The notes under the pieces are model-generated. The model made no database searches and had not been told where the DNA came from. It saw only the letters and a list, made by a program, of their open reading frames with translations. DNA of 64,000 bases from Saccharopolyspora thermophila (GTDB taxonomy: Bacteria; Actinomycetota; Actinomycetes; Mycobacteriales; Pseudonocardiaceae), in assembly GCF_014646075.1 (NCBI RefSeq), contig NZ_BMMT01000003.1:1-64000 (forward strand), given 5' to 3'. Shown here piece after piece: positions 53,807 through 63,863 of the stretch. Position 1 is the stretch's first letter, and every line of letters starts with the position of its first letter. A program made the position numbers and the translations under genes.

Positions 53807-53922
53807 GTCTTCCAGACTAGAGGGCACTGATGATCACGTCCGCCGTATGGGCGTTTCGCCGGACCCGCCTGGTTGCGGGGCGGGCTCCGCCGCGCGGCGC
53901 GCGCTGCACTAGGGTTCCCGCC

Positions 53923-54696
53923 GTGACCAGCGATCTCGATCTCGCACTACACCTGGCCGACGTCGCCGACCGGATCACCGCGGACCGGTTCCGGGCGCGG
54001 GATCTGAGCGTGGACCGCAAGCCCGACCGCACCCCGGTGACCGACGCCGACCTGGCCGTGGAGGACGCGGTGCGCGAGGTGCTCGGCAAGCACCGCCCGG
54101 ACGACGTGGTCGCCGGTGAGGAGCGCGGCGGCACGGCGGGCGAGGGCCGGGCCTGGGTGCTGGACCCGATCGACGGGACGAAGAACTTCCTGCGCGGCAT
54201 CCCGGTGTGGGCGACGCTGATCGCCCTGGTCGACGGGGGGCGCCCGGTGGTGGGCGTGGTGAGCGCCCCGGCGCTGGGCAAGCGCTGGTGGGCCGCAGCC
54301 GGGGAGGGCGCCTGGTGCCGCACCGGTGACGCCGAGCCGGAGCGGATGTCGGTGTCGGGCGTGCGGGACCTCGGCGACGCCTACGTGTCCACCACGCACC
54401 TGGGCACCTGGGTGGAGCACCGGTCGCGGGAGTCGTACCTGCGGTTGGTCGACGCGTGCTGGGAGAACCGCGCGTTCGGCGATTTCTGGCAGCACTGCCT
54501 GGTCGCCGAGGGCGTGATCGACATTGCGGCGGAGCCGATCGTCAACCCGTGGGACGTGGCGGCGGCGCAGGTTCTGGTGGAGGAGGCGGGCGGCCGGTTC
54601 ACCGACCTGGCGGGCGAGGCCCGCTACGACGGGGGCACCGCGCTGTCCACCAACGGTCACCTGCACACCGACGCGTTGCGGCTCCTCCAGCTCTGA
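53923..54696 (+). CDS. hisN: Histidinol-phosphatase (inositol monophosphatase family)
   Basis: 257-residue Mg-dependent phosphatase like M. tuberculosis HisN (Rv3137), dephosphorylating L-histidinol phosphate. The motifs are VAGEERGG (Glu metal ligand), WVLDPIDGTKNFLRGIPVWATL (DPIDGTKNF) and NPWDVAAAQVLVEEAGGRFTD (WD). SLAPALGKRWWAA-like segment GVVSAPALGKRWWAAAGEG is close to the HisN subfamily rather than to inositol phosphatases. The start is a GTG at 53923. It converges with DUF2339, with 3 bases between stops. Not part of a his operon. Confidence 0.87.
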   Translation: MTSDLDLALHLADVADRITADRFRARDLSVDRKPDRTPVTDADLAVEDAVREVLGKHRPDDVVAGEERGGTAGEGRAWVLDPIDGTKNFLRGIPVWATLIALVDGGRPVVGVVSAPALGKRWWAAAGEGAWCRTGDAEPERMSVSGVRDLGDAYVSTTHLGTWVEHRSRESYLRLVDACWENRAFGDFWQHCLVAEGVIDIAAEPIVNPWDVAAAQVLVEEAGGRFTDLAGEARYDGGTALSTNGHLHTDALRLLQL

Positions 54697-56993: not shown

Positions 56994-57243
56994 ACCCCCA
57001 TCGTCGCAGCCGGGACCGTGACCGGCGCTGAGACGGTACTCACACACCGTGACCGGCAAATCGGGCGATCCGCTGCCGATGGCCGACCGCGCGTCGGAAT
57101 CCGCGGTGCGCATGGAACCATCTGTCCGGCGGATGCGTCCAATGCGTGGCGCGCCGTCTGCGGTGTGCCGCGGACGACCGCCTGCCGTTGCCGACCGACC
57201 ACCGCGCATGGTGGTTGCCGCGAGCCAACAGGAGGGAGCGGCT

Positions 57244-57705
57244 GTGCCCACCGATCACCGCGCCCAGGTCGAGGAGCTGATGGCGGATTACCGGCGCAGC
57301 CGGGAACGCCTCGCCGAGACCCGCCGCGACCTGTCCTCGATCGCCGAGTCGGCGAGCAGCAGGGACGGCAGCGTGCGGGTGGTGGTCGGTCCGCAGGGCG
57401 TGCTGCGCGACGTCGTGCTCGCCGACAACGTCTACGACCGGCATCACCCGGATCGGCTGGCGGAGATCATCGTGGAACTGGCCGAGCAGGCCGCGCAGGC
57501 CGCCGCGCGGCGGGCCGCCGACGTGCTCGCCGAGGTCCTGCCGACCGGAACCGATCCAGAGCTGCTGCTGGGCGGACGCGCCGACGGCGAGTCGGTTCCG
57601 GTGCTGCGCAACGAACCGCGAGGCATGGACGACAATGTCGGCGACAGCGCCGACGATTTCTGCGATGGCAGCTGGTTGCAGCAAAGCCCGGCGAAACGGA
57701 CGTGA
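57244..57705 (+). CDS. YbaB/EbfC-family nucleoid-associated protein
   Basis: 153-residue protein. After a helical N-terminus (QVEELMADYRRSRERLAETRRDL) comes the YbaB-type strand-helix part SVRVVVGPQGVLRDVVLADNVYDRHHPDRLAEIIVELAEQAAQAAA, where members bind DNA or act as small chaperones. The C-terminal 50 residues are polar and acidic. In actinomycetes YbaB-like genes often stand first in gene sets with WXG100 proteins and type VII substrates. GGAGGGAG precedes the GTG at 57244. It overlaps the next gene by GTGA, so the two are coupled. Confidence 0.78.
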   Translation: MPTDHRAQVEELMADYRRSRERLAETRRDLSSIAESASSRDGSVRVVVGPQGVLRDVVLADNVYDRHHPDRLAEIIVELAEQAAQAAARRAADVLAEVLPTGTDPELLLGGRADGESVPVLRNEPRGMDDNVGDSADDFCDGSWLQQSPAKRT

Positions 57706-58028
57706 CCATGGGTGGTTTCCGCACTGATCTCGGGCGGCTGGGCAGCAGCGTCGGCGAGTTCGAGGACCTCGCCGGGCGGGCGCAGCGGATCGCCGACGAG
57801 CTGCGCCAGGCCGTGGCGGCGGCCGGTGCCTGCTGGGGCGGCGACGACATCGGCGCCAGCTTCGCCCGCACCCACCGCGCCCGCGCCGACCGGGCCCTCG
57901 ACGACCTCGGCGCGATCGCGGTGCGGTTGCGCGAGATGGGCGCGAAGTTCGCCGAAACGGCCGCGACGACGCGGCAGGTGGATGCCGGCGGCGCCGACGA
58001 GCTCGGCCGGACCACCGGACGGGGGTGA
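57702..58028 (+). CDS. WXG100-like type VII secretion small protein
   Basis: 108-residue all-helical protein with a WGG turn (Trp45-Gly46-Gly47 in GACWGGDDIGASFARTH), the WXG hairpin of ESAT-6-like proteins. The first helix (TDLGRLGSSVGEFEDLAGRAQRIADELRQ) and second helix (RADRALDDLGAIAVRLREMG) are clear. There is no typical C-terminal YxxxD/E, but the C-terminus is short and polar. The start at the GTG at 57702 overlaps the stop of YbaB; an ATG two codons later is the alternative. It ends 4 bases before the TNT-type gene. It probably acts as a secretion partner or chaperone for that protein. No ESX core genes are in the window. Confidence 0.75.
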   Translation: MTMGGFRTDLGRLGSSVGEFEDLAGRAQRIADELRQAVAAAGACWGGDDIGASFARTHRARADRALDDLGAIAVRLREMGAKFAETAATTRQVDAGGADELGRTTGRG

Positions 58029-58032
58029 GTCG

Positions 58033-60411
58033 ATGGGCATCGAACTTCCCGCGGAACTGCGGGATGTCGCGGCGCGTGCGGGGGCTCGCTGGCCGGAGGC
58101 CGACGAGGACGCGATGCGCGCGGCGGCGTCCGCGTGGCGGGCCGCGGCCAGGTCGATCGACGCGCTCGCCGGATCGGCCGACAGCGCGGCCCAGAGCGCG
58201 CTCGCCGCGTTCGACGGCGACGCGGCGCAGGCGGCGCGCCGGGAGTGGAACGGGCTGGTGGCCGACGACGGGATGCTGCCGTCCTCGGCTCGGCAGTGCC
58301 GGGCCGCGGCGGACCGCCTGGAGCACGCCGCGGAGCAGATCGGCGCGGCGAAGGTGCAGCTCGTGCGGGAGCTGGTGAACCTGGCCAAGCAGACCGACGC
58401 GGCCGAGCAGGCGGCAGCGGCCGGACACCCGCAGGCGCTGGCGGCGCTGGACTCGGCGCTGCACGGCGTGGCGGCAAACGTGGCGAAGGTCCACGAAACC
58501 CTGGCGAAGGCGGTGGACTTGGACAGCGGAGTGCTGGTGGAGCCGACCAGCATCCGCCTGCCGTCCGGCGCCACCAGCCTCGCTTCCTCCACAGTGGACA
58601 GTGTGGGTGCTGTGGCCGGACACCTCGGCGGTGGTGTCGGATCGGCGGCGAAGGACGTCGCCGGTGACGTGGGAGCCGCTGCCGACGAACTCACCTCCGG
58701 TGCCGGTTCTGTCGCGGACGGCGACGGCCAGGCGTCGGGTGTCGCCGACGACGTCGGCAGCGCAGCTGAGCACGTCGGCACGTCAGCCGGGGAGGCCATC
58801 TCCCGCGGCGCGGCGGGTGCGTGGCAGGGCGATGCCGAGCACACCGGACCGGTGCGGGTCGATGCGAGAGGCTGGGCTCCTGGCCTCGCCGACGCGGGCA
58901 CCGGCCCCATCCCCACGGTCGGCGACCACCCCGCCCGCCCCGGCTGGATGCCCGCCGGGACCGACCCGGCGTCGAGCACCGCGCCGCACCAGGTGCGCTC
59001 CGCCTGGGCTGCTGCCCCGCAGCCGCCACCGCCGCCTGCGGCTCCCGGCTTCGCCGCACCGCCTCCGGCGGTACCGGGCGGCCACTTCGCGGCGCCGCCC
59101 GCGCACCAGCCGCCCACCACGGCACCTCCGGTATCCGCCGCGCGGCCTCCGATGCCGCCGGCCGCGGCTCGCGGCCCAATCTCGTTCGGCTCCCAGCCGG
59201 TGCCGCAGGTGCGGCAGGTGCCGCGCGCTCCGCTGCGCCCGCTCCCGGCTCCGGTGGCACCACCGCCCCCGCCGCAGCCGGAACCGTCGCAGCGGCCGCT
59301 GCGGCAGGCCGGGCGCAATCCGGATGTGGTTGCGTTCGTGCTGCACCAGTTCCCGATCGGCTACCTGCCGGTGGCAGCGAGCCACGCGAGCAGGCAACTG
59401 CCGGTGCCGGAGTCGCCCGACGCGCGGCGGCCCGGCCTGCGGTTCCCGCCGCAGGACCATCCGCAGTCGCACCTGGTGGACGACAGCGCCGCGCTGGAGC
59501 GGGCGCGCTCGACCGAGGTCTACGCAGCCGCGCGGCGCGACCGGGAGGAGCGCGAGGAACCAGAGCGGCTGCCCGCAGAGCTGGTGGCGGACCACGAGCC
59601 GTTCGGCGAGCTCAGCGAATGGGAGTGGGAGCACCGGTTCGTGGTACGCGACGGCGAGCGCAGCGAGTACGCGTGGCCTCCGGCGGCGGAGTTCCCGGAG
59701 GGCGGCGTGGAACCGGCGGAGCCGGTGGTGCTGGCGCCGGATGCGGTGATCGACTGCCTGGGCGGCGGGGACGGCCGCGTGGCGTTCGCGGCGGGGACGG
59801 CGTTCGCGCAGCGGTCGCTGCCGCCGGAGGACCGCGACCGCGCCTACCGGCGCTACCGGGTCATGCGCCCGCTGCCCGTGTGGCAGTCGGTGGCGGCGCC
59901 GTGGTTCGCCCAGCCGGGCGGCGGGATCCGCTACCGCACCACGTATTCCCTGGTGGACCTGGTTGCCCTGGGTTACCTGGTGGAACTCACCAGGGCCCGC
60001 GCGAACGCGGAGGCCACGACCCTGCGCCTCGACCGTTCCGCGGCGAATCCCCGGCAGCAGGACGGTGTCTGCGCACCGCTGCGGGCGGTTGCCCCGCAAG
60101 GAATCGCTTCCGAAGGCGACGAGTCGGATGCTGCGGCACGCGACGACTCTGCCCCAGAAGTCCCGCAGGCGACCGACGGTGAACCGACCGCGCGCGACAG
60201 CGACGCGGCTGAGTCCGGTCGACGTGCGGGCGAGGACTCCACCACCGTGCGCACCACGCACGTGACCGAGGGCGGAGGCGCGTCGGCGCGCGGGAAGCCT
60301 GGTGGTGCCGCGGTGGAGACGGTGCGGATCACGCAGGGTGACAGGGAGGCCGGAACCGCGGACGCGGCGGGAGCGGCGGACGACGAGGCGACGCAGGAGG
60401 CCGGGAATTGA
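58033..60411 (+). CDS. CpnT-like type VII protein with a degenerate TNT domain
   Basis: 792-residue protein. Residues 1-165 are helical and WXG100-like (WNG at 72-74), like the N-terminal domain of CpnT. A Gly/Ala/Ser-rich stretch (about 165-280) and a Pro-rich linker (about 320-425) follow, then a conserved segment RNPDVVAFVLHQFPIGYLP (about 428-450). Residues about 540-652 match the TNT NAD+ glycohydrolase domain (YAWPP, AQRSLPP, APWFAQPGGGIRYRT, DLVALGYL). However, the residues aligned with CpnT Arg757, Tyr765, His792 and Gln822 are Cys575, Val583, Arg606 and Arg633; only Arg780 (Arg594) is kept. A 140-residue acidic tail follows. I infer no or altered NADase activity. The ATG at 58033 follows GGGGGTGAG. 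Confidence 0.78.
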   Translation: MGIELPAELRDVAARAGARWPEADEDAMRAAASAWRAAARSIDALAGSADSAAQSALAAFDGDAAQAARREWNGLVADDGMLPSSARQCRAAADRLEHAAEQIGAAKVQLVRELVNLAKQTDAAEQAAAAGHPQALAALDSALHGVAANVAKVHETLAKAVDLDSGVLVEPTSIRLPSGATSLASSTVDSVGAVAGHLGGGVGSAAKDVAGDVGAAADELTSGAGSVADGDGQASGVADDVGSAAEHVGTSAGEAISRGAAGAWQGDAEHTGPVRVDARGWAPGLADAGTGPIPTVGDHPARPGWMPAGTDPASSTAPHQVRSAWAAAPQPPPPPAAPGFAAPPPAVPGGHFAAPPAHQPPTTAPPVSAARPPMPPAAARGPISFGSQPVPQVRQVPRAPLRPLPAPVAPPPPPQPEPSQRPLRQAGRNPDVVAFVLHQFPIGYLPVAASHASRQLPVPESPDARRPGLRFPPQDHPQSHLVDDSAALERARSTEVYAAARRDREEREEPERLPAELVADHEPFGELSEWEWEHRFVVRDGERSEYAWPPAAEFPEGGVEPAEPVVLAPDAVIDCLGGGDGRVAFAAGTAFAQRSLPPEDRDRAYRRYRVMRPLPVWQSVAAPWFAQPGGGIRYRTTYSLVDLVALGYLVELTRARANAEATTLRLDRSAANPRQQDGVCAPLRAVAPQGIASEGDESDAAARDDSAPEVPQATDGEPTARDSDAAESGRRAGEDSTTVRTTHVTEGGGASARGKPGGAAVETVRITQGDREAGTADAAGAADDEATQEAGN

Positions 60412-60713
60412 ACAGCGAATCCGTGGTCGGCTGGTTGTCGGCGATGGGTGTCCCGGAGGAACTGGTGTCGGTCGGGGCGGAAGCCGACGACGCGTGGTGT
60501 CTGGTGCGCGACGAGACCGACGGCAACCCGGCCTGGGAGGTTTTCTGGCGGGAGCAGGGAAACCGTTACGACTGGGCGCGTTTCAGCAGCGAGCAGGTGG
60601 CCTGCTTCTACCTGTTCGGCAGGCTGACCTGGACCCAGGCCCTCCGCGGCGTGGTGGGCCCGGTGGACGTCGCGGACACCCCGGCCAAGGGGACCCCGGC
60701 CCAACGCCTCTGA
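60408..60713 (+). CDS. Small protein coupled to the TNT-type gene (candidate partner or immunity protein)
   Basis: 101-residue, mostly acidic, soluble protein (VVGWLSAMGVPEELVSVGAE, AWEVFWREQGNRYDWARF, SSEQVACFYLFGRLTWTQAL). I do not recognise a family, though the YDWARF and YLFGRLTW stretches look like conserved parts of immunity-type proteins found next to TNT genes. The start is an unusual TTG at 60408: it overlaps the preceding TGA as TTGA and has AGGAGG 8 bases upstream; the next in-frame GTG (60423) has no such support. As the toxin-type domain is degenerate, the product may be a partner rather than an antidote. Confidence 0.68.
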   Translation: MNSESVVGWLSAMGVPEELVSVGAEADDAWCLVRDETDGNPAWEVFWREQGNRYDWARFSSEQVACFYLFGRLTWTQALRGVVGPVDVADTPAKGTPAQRL

Positions 60714-60849: not shown

Positions 60850-61488
60850 TCAGCCGTGGCGGGGGTGCTCGACGCGCAGACCTGCCGTGACCGCCGCGTG
60901 CACCGCCCGGGCCAGCGGCGCGCCGATGCGGGAGCGCGGGCCGCCGTACGGCTCGGCTTCGCCGTCGGCCGGGCAGAGCACCACCGTCGCGTCGGTGACC
61001 GTGCCGGTCCCCGCCACGCCCGCCTCCAGCAGTGCCTGCGCCTTGGCTTCCGCCACCGTCGCGACCGCGTTGACCAGCGCCGCCTCGCTGAGCCGCACCG
61101 GCGACCAGCACACCGCGTTGATCGTCCCCGGCGCCCACAGCTGCTGCGCCGATTCCGGTTCCGCCGCCCAGATCGGGTGTTGCGCGCCGGTCGTCACGCT
61201 GACCTGCACGCCGCCGTCGAACGCGCTCACCTCGTGCCGCACGTCCACGGCGGTCAGCAGGCCCACCCCGTCGCCGGACAGGCCGACCGCACCGGCCATC
61301 TCGTCGATGTGCGCAGGTGGGTCGGGGTGGTCGTAATCGGTTTCGACGGTCGCGTTGAGCACCCAGGAGCGCAGGCCGATGCCGCCGCCGCGGGGCGCCG
61401 AGGAGACCGCCAGCCACGGCCGCGCGCAGCGCCAGACCAGAAGCGGGCGGTCCGCCACCTCGCGCAGCGCCGGTTTCGGCGCGCTCAC
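60850..61488 (-). CDS. cbiZ: Adenosylcobinamide amidohydrolase CbiZ
   Basis: 212-residue enzyme that cleaves the aminopropanol side chain of adenosylcobinamide, allowing salvage of incomplete corrinoids to adenosylcobyric acid. WVLNATVETDYDHPDP, GVGLLTAVDVRHEV, GTINAVCWSPVRLSEAALVNAVATVAEAKAQALLEAG and GTVTDATVVLCP follow the CbiZ family. The GTG at 61488 overlaps the stop of the lyase gene (GTGA). No other cobalamin gene is near. A weak hairpin (60824-60839) may end the unit. CbiZ is scattered among actinobacteria. Confidence 0.87.
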   Translation of the reverse strand: MSAPKPALREVADRPLLVWRCARPWLAVSSAPRGGGIGLRSWVLNATVETDYDHPDPPAHIDEMAGAVGLSGDGVGLLTAVDVRHEVSAFDGGVQVSVTTGAQHPIWAAEPESAQQLWAPGTINAVCWSPVRLSEAALVNAVATVAEAKAQALLEAGVAGTGTVTDATVVLCPADGEAEPYGGPRSRIGAPLARAVHAAVTAGLRVEHPRHG

Positions 61489-62435
61489 GAAGCGAGGGCC
61501 CTGACCACCCGGGACGGGCTCGGCCGACCGAGCCGCTCCGCCATCCACACGCTGGTCTCGACGAGCTTGGTCAGGTCGACGCCGTGCTTGACGCCCAGCC
61601 CGTCGAGCATCCACACGAGGTCCTCGGTGGCCAGGTTGCCGGTGGCCGACTTGGCGTAGGGGCAGCCGCCCAGCCCGCCCGCCGAAGAGTCCACAGTGCT
61701 CACGCCGTGCCGCAGCGCGGCGTAGGTGTTGGCCAGGGCCTGCCCGTAGGTGTCGTGGAAGTGCACGCCCAACCGGTCCACCGCCACCCCGGCGGTGCCG
61801 AACGCGCGCAGCAGCGTCTCGACGTGACCGGGCGTCGCCACGCCGATGGTGTCCCCCAGGGACAGCTGGTCGCAGCCCATCTCCAGCAGCCGCCGCCCCA
61901 CCGAGACGACCTGCTCGACCGGCACCGGCCCCTCCCACGGGTCGCCGAAGCACATCGAGATGTAGCCGCGCACCGTCAGGCCCTCCTCCACGGCGCGCCG
62001 CACCACCGGCTCGAACATCGCGAACTGCTCGTCCAGGCCGCGGTTGAGGTTGCGGCGGGTGAAGGTCTCGGTGGCCGAGGCGAAGATCGCGATGTCCCGC
62101 ACGTCCGACTCCAGCGCCCGGTCGAGGCCGCGCGAGTTCGGCACCAGCACCGGGTAGCGCACGCCCGGTGCCCGCTGCAGGCCGGCCAGCAGCTCCGCCG
62201 CGTCGGCGAGCTGCGGCACCCACTCCGGGCGCACGAAGCTGGTGGCCTCCAGCACCCCGAGTCCGGCGTCGGCCAGGCGGTGCAGGAACTCCAGCTTGAC
62301 GTCGAGTGGGACGATCTCCTTCTCGTTCTGCAGACCGTCGCGCGGCCCGACCTCCCAGATCGTCACGGCTGCGGGCAGCTCCCCCGGCTCCGGCGAGGCC
62401 ACCTGCATGGGCAGGCCCAGTTCACGCGACGTCAT
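61485..62435 (-). CDS. Hydroxymethylglutaryl-CoA lyase family protein
   Basis: 316-residue DRE-TIM metallolyase. VGPRDGLQNEKEIVPLD provides the metal Asp and Arg, CFGDPWEGPVP and LSLGDTIGVATP the barrel motifs, HFHDTYGQALAN the metal histidines, and GGLGGCPYAKSATGN the flexible loop with the catalytic Cys. It splits HMG-CoA to acetoacetate and acetyl-CoA in leucine breakdown; close relatives with other acyl-CoA substrates exist. The ATG at 62435 follows GGAGGAA with 5-7 base spacing. It is coupled to cbiZ. Confidence 0.9.
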   Translation of the reverse strand: MTSRELGLPMQVASPEPGELPAAVTIWEVGPRDGLQNEKEIVPLDVKLEFLHRLADAGLGVLEATSFVRPEWVPQLADAAELLAGLQRAPGVRYPVLVPNSRGLDRALESDVRDIAIFASATETFTRRNLNRGLDEQFAMFEPVVRRAVEEGLTVRGYISMCFGDPWEGPVPVEQVVSVGRRLLEMGCDQLSLGDTIGVATPGHVETLLRAFGTAGVAVDRLGVHFHDTYGQALANTYAALRHGVSTVDSSAGGLGGCPYAKSATGNLATEDLVWMLDGLGVKHGVDLTKLVETSVWMAERLGRPSPSRVVRALAS

Positions 62436-62488
62436 CGGCGTTCCTCCGTCTCTCCTACGACGCCCGCACCTGGTCGGACCCGGCGCGG

Positions 62489-62983
62489 TCACTCGTCCAG
62501 AGCATCGTCGGTGACCTCCCGGTAGAGCAAGGTGTGCACCTTCTCCACCTGCGGGATGTCGTCGAACTCCAGCGGCTCGTCCGAAGCCGACTCGACGATC
62601 AGCGTGCCGCAGCCCAGCAACCGGTCCAGCAGCCCGTGCCGGAAGCGCACCGAGTTGATCCGCGACATCGGGATGTCCACTCCGGTCCGGGTGAACACGC
62701 CCTCGCGGACCATCAGCCGGTGCGTGGTGACCACGAAGTGGGTGGTGCGCCAGCGCACCAGCGGGGCGAGGGTGCACCAGATGATCAGGATCGCGCCGAC
62801 CGCACCGAGGGCGATCCACACCGGCACCCGCCAGCTGGTCGTCGCGGCCAGCGCCGCGAGGTAGGAACCGCCGCCGACCACCACGAACAGGACCAGCACC
62901 GGGACGACGAGCATCTTCCAGTGCGGGTGCTTGTGCACGACGACGTACTCGTCCGCCGCCAGCAGGCCATCCGGGTAGGCCAC
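62489..62983 (-). CDS. PH-domain membrane protein
   Basis: 164-residue protein equivalent to Rv3278c. Two membrane helices near the N-terminus (MLVVPVLVLFVVVGGGSYLAAL, VPVWIALGAVGAILIIW) precede a bacterial PH-like (bPH2) domain RTTHFVVTTHRLMVREGVFTRTGVDIPMSRINSVRFRHGLLDRLLG. Function unknown. The start is the GTG at 62983 (VAYPDGLLAADEY) with GAGGAGG upstream. It is downstream of birA, in the same direction, with 46 bases between. Confidence 0.87.
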   Translation of the reverse strand: MAYPDGLLAADEYVVVHKHPHWKMLVVPVLVLFVVVGGGSYLAALAATTSWRVPVWIALGAVGAILIIWCTLAPLVRWRTTHFVVTTHRLMVREGVFTRTGVDIPMSRINSVRFRHGLLDRLLGCGTLIVESASDEPLEFDDIPQVEKVHTLLYREVTDDALDE

Positions 62984-63029
62984 GCCGATCCTCCTCACCC
63001 TCGTCGCCGGTCACCGATCACGTTACCGA

Positions 63030-63863
63030 TCAGGACCGGCGCAGGTGGACCACGTCGCCGGCGGACACCGCCGTGCTGGTGCCGTCGGCCGCGCGCACCA
63101 CGAGCCGCCCGGCCGCGTCAATGTCGGTGGCGACGCCGCGCACCTGCTCATCCGGCCCCAGTTCGACGCGCACCTGCTGACCGAGGGTGCTGCACAGGGC
63201 CCGGTACCGGTCCAGCAGGCCGGTCGCGACCACGTCCCCGCCGGTGCCCCGCCAGACGTCCTCGAGCTCGGCGAACGCCGTGAGCAACGCCACCGCGAAC
63301 GCCTCGCGGTCCACGTCCGCGCCCTGCGCCACCAACGACGTCGCGGGCAGGCCACCGGCGCCGCGCGGCAGGTCCTCGGGCCGCTGGTGGACGTTGACGC
63401 CCATGCCCAGCACCACCGCCATGCCGTCGGGTCCGGCGACGGCATCGGCCAGGATGCCCGCGCCCTTCAGCCACTCGTCGCCGTCGCCGAGCAGGAGGTC
63501 GTTCGGCCACTTCAACGCGGCCGGCACGCCGGTCTCGCGCCGCACGGTCTCGGCCAGGGCGACCCCGGCGACCAGCGGCAACCAGGCCAGGGCGGTCGGC
63601 GGCACGTCCGGCCGCAGCAGCACGCTCACGAACAGCCCGCAACCGCGCGGCGACGCCCACTGCCGCTGCAATCGGCCGCGCCCGGCCTGCTGCTCCTCGG
63701 CGATCAGCACGGTGCGGTCCGCCGCGCCGCGGCCCGCGGCGGCCACCAGGTCGGTGTTCGTCGACCCGGTGACGGTCACCACGTCCAGCGCGCGGTAGGG
63801 CCCGCGGTCGACCAGCCGCGCGCGCAGCCGGGCGCCGTCCAACAACACGGGAGTCGTCACCAC
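63030..63863 (-). CDS. birA: Biotin-[acetyl-CoA-carboxylase] ligase
   Basis: 277-residue class I biotin protein ligase; no N-terminal helix-turn-helix, so not a repressor. GSTNTDLVAAAG, EEQQAGRGRLQRQWASP (the GRGRxxR biotinyl-AMP loop), KWPNDLLLGDGDEWLKGAGIL and MGVNVHQ are all present, and a C-terminal SH3-like domain follows. It activates the carboxyl carrier of acyl-CoA carboxylases, which usually lie next to it (accD5 in mycobacteria). The GTG at 63863 or 63860 starts it. Rv3279c equivalent. Confidence 0.93.
   Translation of the reverse strand: MVTTPVLLDGARLRARLVDRGPYRALDVVTVTGSTNTDLVAAAGRGAADRTVLIAEEQQAGRGRLQRQWASPRGCGLFVSVLLRPDVPPTALAWLPLVAGVALAETVRRETGVPAALKWPNDLLLGDGDEWLKGAGILADAVAGPDGMAVVLGMGVNVHQRPEDLPRGAGGLPATSLVAQGADVDREAFAVALLTAFAELEDVWRGTGGDVVATGLLDRYRALCSTLGQQVRVELGPDEQVRGVATDIDAAGRLVVRAADGTSTAVSAGDVVHLRRS

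What the first reader, a model, noticed from the sequence alone, without database searches (positions are those of the whole stretch)
59650..59990. TNT-fold domain with nearly all known active-site residues replaced
The region reads as a TNT domain (AQRSLPP, AYRRYRV, APWFAQPGGGIRYRT, DLVALGYL). Compared with M. tuberculosis CpnT from memory, the positions of Arg757, Tyr765, His792 and Gln822 are Cys575, Val583, Arg606 and Arg633 here, while Arg780 is kept as Arg594. The fold core is preserved but not the chemistry, which points to a pseudoenzyme or a new substrate. I know of no described TNT pseudoenzyme family.
Basis: partly seen in the sequence, partly recalled or inferred. Interest (0 to 1): 0.85.

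Follow-up and report, generated by a model that had tools for sequence, protein, structure and literature searches.

The report
Dead toxin domain with conserved partner
A soil actinomycete carries a protein that looks like a cell-killing NAD-destroying toxin but has lost the parts needed for the reaction; the same disarmed version, with its likely former antidote beside it, is kept in most of that bacterial family, which suggests a weapon turned into an ordinary cell component.

Summary
The R/F/Q residues each needed for activity in a solved fungal TNT-type NADase are Cys575, Val583 and Arg633. Fold residues Trp548, Asp574 and Arg594 are kept. His792 is a poor marker; loss of Arg757 is mostly a genus trait.

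This is not one decayed gene. In 73 distinct sequences the catalytic Gln is never kept (72 Arg, 1 Cys; 1 Gln of 120 in another set), Trp/Asp/Arg780 are invariant, and dN/dS is 0.08-0.30. The gene lies at a fixed locus in most genomes of its family (97 of 120), behind YbaB and WXG100-like genes. An unnamed gene overlaps its stop codon (60408-60713). It is more conserved than the TNT domain, and relatives lie behind some TNT genes that keep the Gln, or are fused in front of other TNT domains. Two genera keep it at this locus without a TNT.

Best explanation: a domesticated toxin-immunity pair, now a T7SS-type pseudo-TNT and a conserved partner. Loss of activity, binding and export are inferred, not measured. 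My literature searches found no TNT pseudoenzyme family.

The parts
57049..57705 (+). YbaB/EbfC-family ORF, first gene of the presumed operon (true start uncertain)
   Evidence: PF02575 E 1.1e-8; found in all 32 loci L031-L062 and in L072 (33 hits of 70 loci; the shorter loci L005-L030 mostly do not reach it)
57708..58028 (+). WXG100-like small protein
   Evidence: TIGR03930 E 7.4e-4, below its cut-off; found in 43 of 70 loci (many loci are too short to contain it)
58033..60411 (+). 792-aa protein: WXG100_2 helical domain, Pro-rich linker, conserved pre-TNT segment, pseudo-TNT, C-terminal tail
   Evidence: ATG at 58033, TGA at 60409-60411; Pfam
58081..58434 (+). WXG100_2 domain (residues 17-134), type VII secretion type
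   Evidence: PF25547 E 2.1e-13
59305..59670 (+). conserved pre-TNT segment (FPxG ... Q ... HP motif)
   Evidence: alignment A2, 30 sequences
59731..59985 (+). pseudo-TNT domain (residues 567-651)
59674..59676 (+). Trp548, position of the stacking Phe727 (kept aromatic)
   Evidence: Trp in 73 of 73 distinct sequences
59755..59757 (+). Cys575, position of essential Arg757/R129
   Evidence: R 51, C 15, L 5, H 2 of 73
59779..59781 (+). Val583, position of Tyr765/F137
   Evidence: aromatic in 6 of 73
59812..59814 (+). Arg594, structural Arg780/R148 (kept)
   Evidence: Arg in 73 of 73
59929..59931 (+). Arg633, position of catalytic Gln822/Q194
   Evidence: Arg in 72 of 73, Cys in 1; four different Arg codons in 32 sequences
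60408..60713 (+). 101-aa partner protein, no Pfam family; TTG start overlaps the TGA of the TNT gene (TTGA)
   Evidence: directly 3' of TNT in the 58 of 70 loci that have either
61485..63863 (-). conserved flank: HMGL-like (61485-62447), bacterial PH (62489-62998), biotin protein ligase (63030-63863)
   Evidence: Pfam; synteny
53830..54696 (+). conserved flank on the other side: inositol monophosphatase family
   Evidence: PF00459 E 2.2e-49; synteny

Best explanation
The locus is a domesticated toxin-immunity pair. The ancestor was a CpnT-like secreted TNT toxin (WXG100-type secretion domain, linker, TNT) with an immunity gene behind it. In this family the toxin lost its catalytic Gln (to Arg) and usually its ribose-contacting aromatic, while its fold, its stacking Trp and its D-R salt bridge stayed. 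The immunity protein stayed as a tightly conserved partner. Shown here: the residue replacements, family-wide conservation, purifying selection, fixed synteny, gene overlap, kinship of the partner to genes and domains tied to other TNTs (some of which keep the Gln), and retention of the partner without the TNT at this locus in two genera. Inferred: that the domain does not hydrolyse NAD(P)+, that the partner family began as TNT immunity, that the two proteins bind each other (partner loop in the Arg-lined old active site), that the protein is handled by a type VII secretion system, and that the pair has a housekeeping or signalling role rather than a killing role.
For: Catalytic positions; mutation of R129, F137 or Q194 inactivated AfNADase and the R148-D128 pair is thought structural (PMC7955114 section 9); R757A gave no detectable activity in TNT, and Tyr765 and Gln822 are important but not essential there (PMC6398120 abstract and passages). 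Selection: dN/dS of the TNT part 0.08-0.30 in 11 of 11 pairs, partner 0-0.17; four Arg codons at the Gln position. Distribution: type-A protein in 97 of 120 family genomes, 38 of 46 genera; partner in 177 of 200 genomes, 43 of 46 genera. Adjacency in 58 of 58 loci that have either gene (70 loci scanned), and 13 of 13 further type-A loci. Partner conservation outside the genus: median identity 67% against 51% for TNT and 53% for the biotin ligase (25 loci). Partner kin to the stretch in front of TNT in the own-genome type B paralogue: hhalign 93.6%, E 2.2e-7, 70 columns; direct search E 0.007. With a profile of the window-type partner alone, a partner-family ORF lies directly 3' on the same strand of the TNT in 3 of 11 distinct fetched loci that keep the Gln: L118/L155 E 2e-15, L133 3e-14, L098/L090 1e-6. 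L155 (G176) has R, F, R, H and Q all in place, and its partner was found with profile A1 at E 9.5e-15. TNT absent but partner kept at the same locus in genus g64 (between PH and IMPase genes) and g62 (pre-TNT motif fused straight to the partner). YukD-family T7SS genes at 4 places in this genome.
Against: No activity, binding or export was measured. In TNT itself Tyr765 and Gln822 mutants keep some activity, so sequence alone does not prove zero activity. Conserved Trp548 and, outside the Saccharopolyspora-type rows, Arg757 could mean that a nucleotide is still bound. One of 120 homologues (P0038) has Gln at the position. Of 11 Gln-bearing TNT loci, 6 had no partner that I could detect; two more (L093, L097) matched the mixed profile but are not significant with the window-type profile (E 5 and 0.01). 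That same profile sees the type B and most type C cis stretches only weakly. The type-A protein and the partner are missing in some genera (8 of 46 and 3 of 46), so the pair is not essential to the family. No relation of the partner to IFT was detected. The tree node joining type A is weak (96/73) and includes the Gln-bearing row L090. My model of the window protein is of moderate confidence (pLDDT 64.5; blocks of the TNT part 53-91, the Arg633 block 60).
Confidence: 0.63

Rival explanations
1. An active enzyme with new chemistry or a new substrate: the Arg-lined cleft (Arg594, Arg606, Arg633, Arg635, and Arg at the 757 position in most of the family) binds and processes another phosphate-rich ligand.
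For: Arg633 and Arg635 are conserved in 72 of 73 and 73 of 73, and Trp548, Asp574, Arg594 are invariant, so the cleft is under selection as a site.
Against: No invariant Glu, Gln or His appears as a replacement: in alignment A2 the only invariant acid is column D150 (the structural D756 position), the one invariant His lies in the pre-TNT segment, and the invariant Gln of the TNT part (Q203) is the loop Gln also seen in most survey TNTs.
Confidence: 0.15
2. A working NADase toxin that tolerates these replacements, with the 101-aa protein as its real immunity factor.
For: Operon order and secretion-type domain match a toxin-immunity pair; Y765 and Q822 mutants of TNT keep some activity; the partner family also sits behind some TNTs with the catalytic Gln.
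Against: All three AfNADase-essential positions are replaced at once; immunity genes usually diversify fast (general knowledge), but this one is conserved like core genes; fixed locus; partner persists without the TNT in some genera.
Confidence: 0.1
3. The pair is a resident defence: the partner gives immunity against foreign TNT toxins and the pseudo-TNT only stabilises or titrates it.
For: Partner kept without TNT in genera g64 and g62; the type B paralogue in the same genome combines an EsaG-like immunity fold, a partner-like stretch and a pseudo-TNT in one chain.
Against: The type A protein keeps a secretion-type N-domain and WXG100-like neighbour, odd for a cytosolic stabiliser; no neutralisation was tested.
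Confidence: 0.25
4. A decaying toxin pseudogene.
For: Catalytic residues lost.
Against: Open 792-aa frame; dN/dS 0.08-0.30; replacement fixed to one residue across the family.
Confidence: 0.02

Closest known systems
[quoted passage not shown] tuberculosis)
   Different: Catalytic residues replaced; partner shows no detectable sequence relation to IFT; a YbaB-like gene stands first; CpnT sequence itself was not fetched
Fungal surface NADases (AfNADase 6yge/6ygg, 8r15, 8r17)
   Same: Closest solved TNT-domain structures by sequence and by fold
   Different: R129/F137/Q194 all replaced here; different N-terminal part (WXG100_2 and linker)
T6SS NADase effectors Tse6 (Tne1), Tne2 and Rhs1-CT (Tne3)
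   Different: Active enzymes and another secretion system (PMC10539506 passages); their immunity proteins did not match the partner profile
EsaG/YezG-like immunity proteins
   Different: Not found in the window protein

Membership tests
TNT domain family (PF14021) | profile match over the curated cut-off | tested here: met
   98.3 bits against 27, positions 2-87 of 88
TNT domain family (PF14021) | TNT/ART-like palm fold | tested here: met
TNT-type NADase | catalytic motif Arg - Tyr/Phe - Gln | tested here: not met
   Cys575, Val583, Arg633
TNT-type NADase | structural Asp-Arg salt-bridge pair | tested here: met
   Asp574, Arg594; both residues invariant in 73 of 73; the bridge itself was not inspected
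TNT-type NADase | NAD(P)+ glycohydrolase activity | not testable with these tools
   needs an assay
CpnT-like T7SS toxin operon | secretion-type helical N-domain and WXG100 neighbours | tested here: met
   PF25547 E 2.1e-13; the WXG100 neighbour is weak, E 7.4e-4, below cut-off
CpnT-like T7SS toxin operon | IFT-type immunity protein | tested here: inconclusive
   profile A1 finds no IFT chain in the PDB up to E 10; the fold of the partner alone was not predicted
CpnT-like T7SS toxin operon | export by a T7SS | not testable with these tools
   four YukD-family matches in the genome show only that T7SS genes exist
Polymorphic toxin-immunity system | variable, fast-diverging toxin/immunity cassette | tested here: not met
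   fixed locus, partner median identity 67% outside the genus, partner in 177 of 200 genomes

The most novel reading that the evidence does not exclude
A whole bacterial family has turned an NAD-destroying toxin and its antidote into a core cellular module: the disarmed TNT domain keeps its nucleotide cleft (invariant Trp, D-R pair, extra Args) as a sensor of NAD(P), ADP-ribose or another phosphate ligand, and passes the signal to the highly conserved former immunity protein, possibly at the cell surface through type VII secretion. A further line (types B and C: Ala at the Gln position, partner-like stretch fused in cis) did the same separately.
Probability: 0.22. Interest if true: 0.85.

Novelty: new variant of a known kind. 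Interest (0 to 1): 0.62.

Why it matters
Toxin-immunity pairs are known as fast-changing weapons. This looks like a case where such a pair was disarmed and fixed as a core locus over 38 sampled genera, with the former antidote more conserved than the former toxin and in places outliving it. It gives a testable example of how conflict systems feed ordinary cell biology, shows that a 'TNT domain' or 'glycohydrolase toxin TNT-related' label need not imply NADase activity, and points to an unnamed TNT-associated protein family.

Full report
WHAT IS THERE. The finding lies in a 792-aa protein at 58033-60411 + (ATG at 58033, TGA at 60409-60411). Pfam gives WXG100_2 at residues 17-134 (E 2.1e-13) and TNT at 567-651 (E 3.6e-28, profile 2-87 of 88). 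Upstream in the same direction are a YbaB/EbfC-family ORF (E 1.1e-8) and a WXG100-like small protein (TIGR03930 E 7.4e-4, below cut-off). Downstream, a 101-aa gene starts with a TTG that overlaps the stop codon of the TNT gene (60408-60713). It has no Pfam family.

ACTIVE SITE. The phmmer alignment to fungal NADases of known structure fixes the mapping: AfNADase R129, F137 and Q194 correspond to Cys575, Val583 and Arg633; the structural pair D128/R148 is kept as Asp574/Arg594. Mutation of R129, F137 or Q194 inactivated AfNADase, and R148 pairs with D128, probably for stability (PMC7955114, section 9 read). In TNT, Phe727, Arg757 and Arg780 are essential, and Tyr765 and Gln822 important but not essential (PMC6398120, abstract and passages). 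PMC10539506 (passages) equates the two residue sets. The Phe727 position is Trp548 here (placed by the WPP motif and alignment). His792 is His in only 3 of 10 survey TNT domains as aligned, although 9 of the 10 keep the Gln, so its loss means little. The 10 come from 16 matches in 10 of 296 phylum genomes: I left out the window itself, the two own-genome paralogues (shown through their types B and C), the duplicate L102 and the partial L104 and L105; L090 stands for L098.

FAMILY-WIDE. Among the 120 listed of 175 homologues, the Gln822 position is Arg in 117, Lys in 2, Gln in 1. In 96 loci plus the window, reduced to 73 distinct TNT sequences, it is Arg in 72 and Cys in 1; Trp548, Asp574, Arg594 and Arg635 are invariant; the Arg757 position is Arg 51, Cys 15, Leu 5, His 2; the Tyr765 position is aromatic in 6. 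These loci were chosen by similarity to the window protein (type A). dN/dS of the TNT part is 0.08-0.30 in 11 of 11 pairs, and of the partner 0-0.17; the Arg at the Gln position uses four codons (21 CGC, 6 CGG, 4 CGT, 1 AGG) in 32 sequences. This is purifying selection on a changed site.

LOCUS. In one search, 58 of 70 loci (L005-L074) encode the TNT domain, and the same 58 the partner, always adjacent in the same direction; the other 12 match the N-terminal domain only, except that L071 also shows a WXG match and L072 the WXG, YbaB and flanking genes. Some genomes occur twice (genome search and genome contigs). Among L031-L062 the flanks are biotin ligase, PH-domain protein and HMGL-like on one side (30, 32 and 31 of 32) and inositol monophosphatase on the other in most loci that reach that far (names by Pfam). 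Outside the genus (25 loci, L038-L062) median identities are partner 67, N-domain 61, TNT 51, biotin ligase 53, PH 61, HMGL 74, IMPase 70 percent. The partner is found in 177 of 200 family genomes and 43 of 46 genera, and at E 1e-5 in 2 of 246 class-level genomes, one being this one. The type-A protein is found in 97 of 120 family genomes at E 1e-40, 38 of 46 genera. None of the 20 listed partner-less genomes is among those 97; 17 of these 20 have no TNT match and 3 have a TNT-only match. The sampled genomes of genera g3 and g5 lack both genes, so the pair is not universal.

TOXIN LOST, PARTNER KEPT. In genus g64 (L148, L149) the partner lies between the PH and IMPase genes without TNT, WXG or YbaB. 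In g62 (L153) the pre-TNT motif runs straight into the partner in one ORF, with no TNT domain. In g59 and g56 (L150-L152) a divergent partner stands elsewhere. I saw no type-A genome without a listed partner.

TREE. With the catalytic columns left out (73 rows, 135 columns), types B and C form one side of a branch (100/99). Type A plus L090 join weakly (96/73), with long branches noted. The Gln position needs 4 changes. Separate losses in A and in B/C are likely, not proven.

READING. I take this as a disarmed toxin-immunity pair fixed as a core module. Shown: replacements, conservation, selection, synteny, partner kinship, retention without the TNT. Inferred: the ancestral immunity role, absence of NADase activity, complex formation, T7SS export (the genome has four YukD-family genes), and any signalling role. 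The operon resembles esxF-esxE-cpnT-ift (PMC8593097, passages; PMC7810871, search listing), but the partner shows no detectable sequence relation to IFT (section 8 of PMC3976054 read for its fold). Novelty in print rests only.

Noticed in passing
own genome C3:308000-322000 (L080), outside the window: A third TNT protein (type B, Ala at the Gln position) with an EsaG-like immunity fold lies beside a 1285-aa ADP-ribosylglycohydrolase (PF03747); an ADP-ribosylglycohydrolase also precedes the Gln-bearing TNT in L155.
   Followed up: partly
own genome C3:168000-182000 (L079:4633-6888): A second TNT protein (type C) with Ala at the Gln position and a weak partner-like stretch far upstream of its TNT (E 3e-4).
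   Followed up: partly
   Followed up: no
L153 (G117, genus g62): TNT domain absent; pre-TNT motif and partner in one ORF.
   Followed up: partly
60850-61482 -: CbiZ adenosylcobinamide amidohydrolase (PF01955 E 4.2e-50) beside the locus, present in 19 of the 70 loci scanned (there labelled SIMPL).
   Followed up: no
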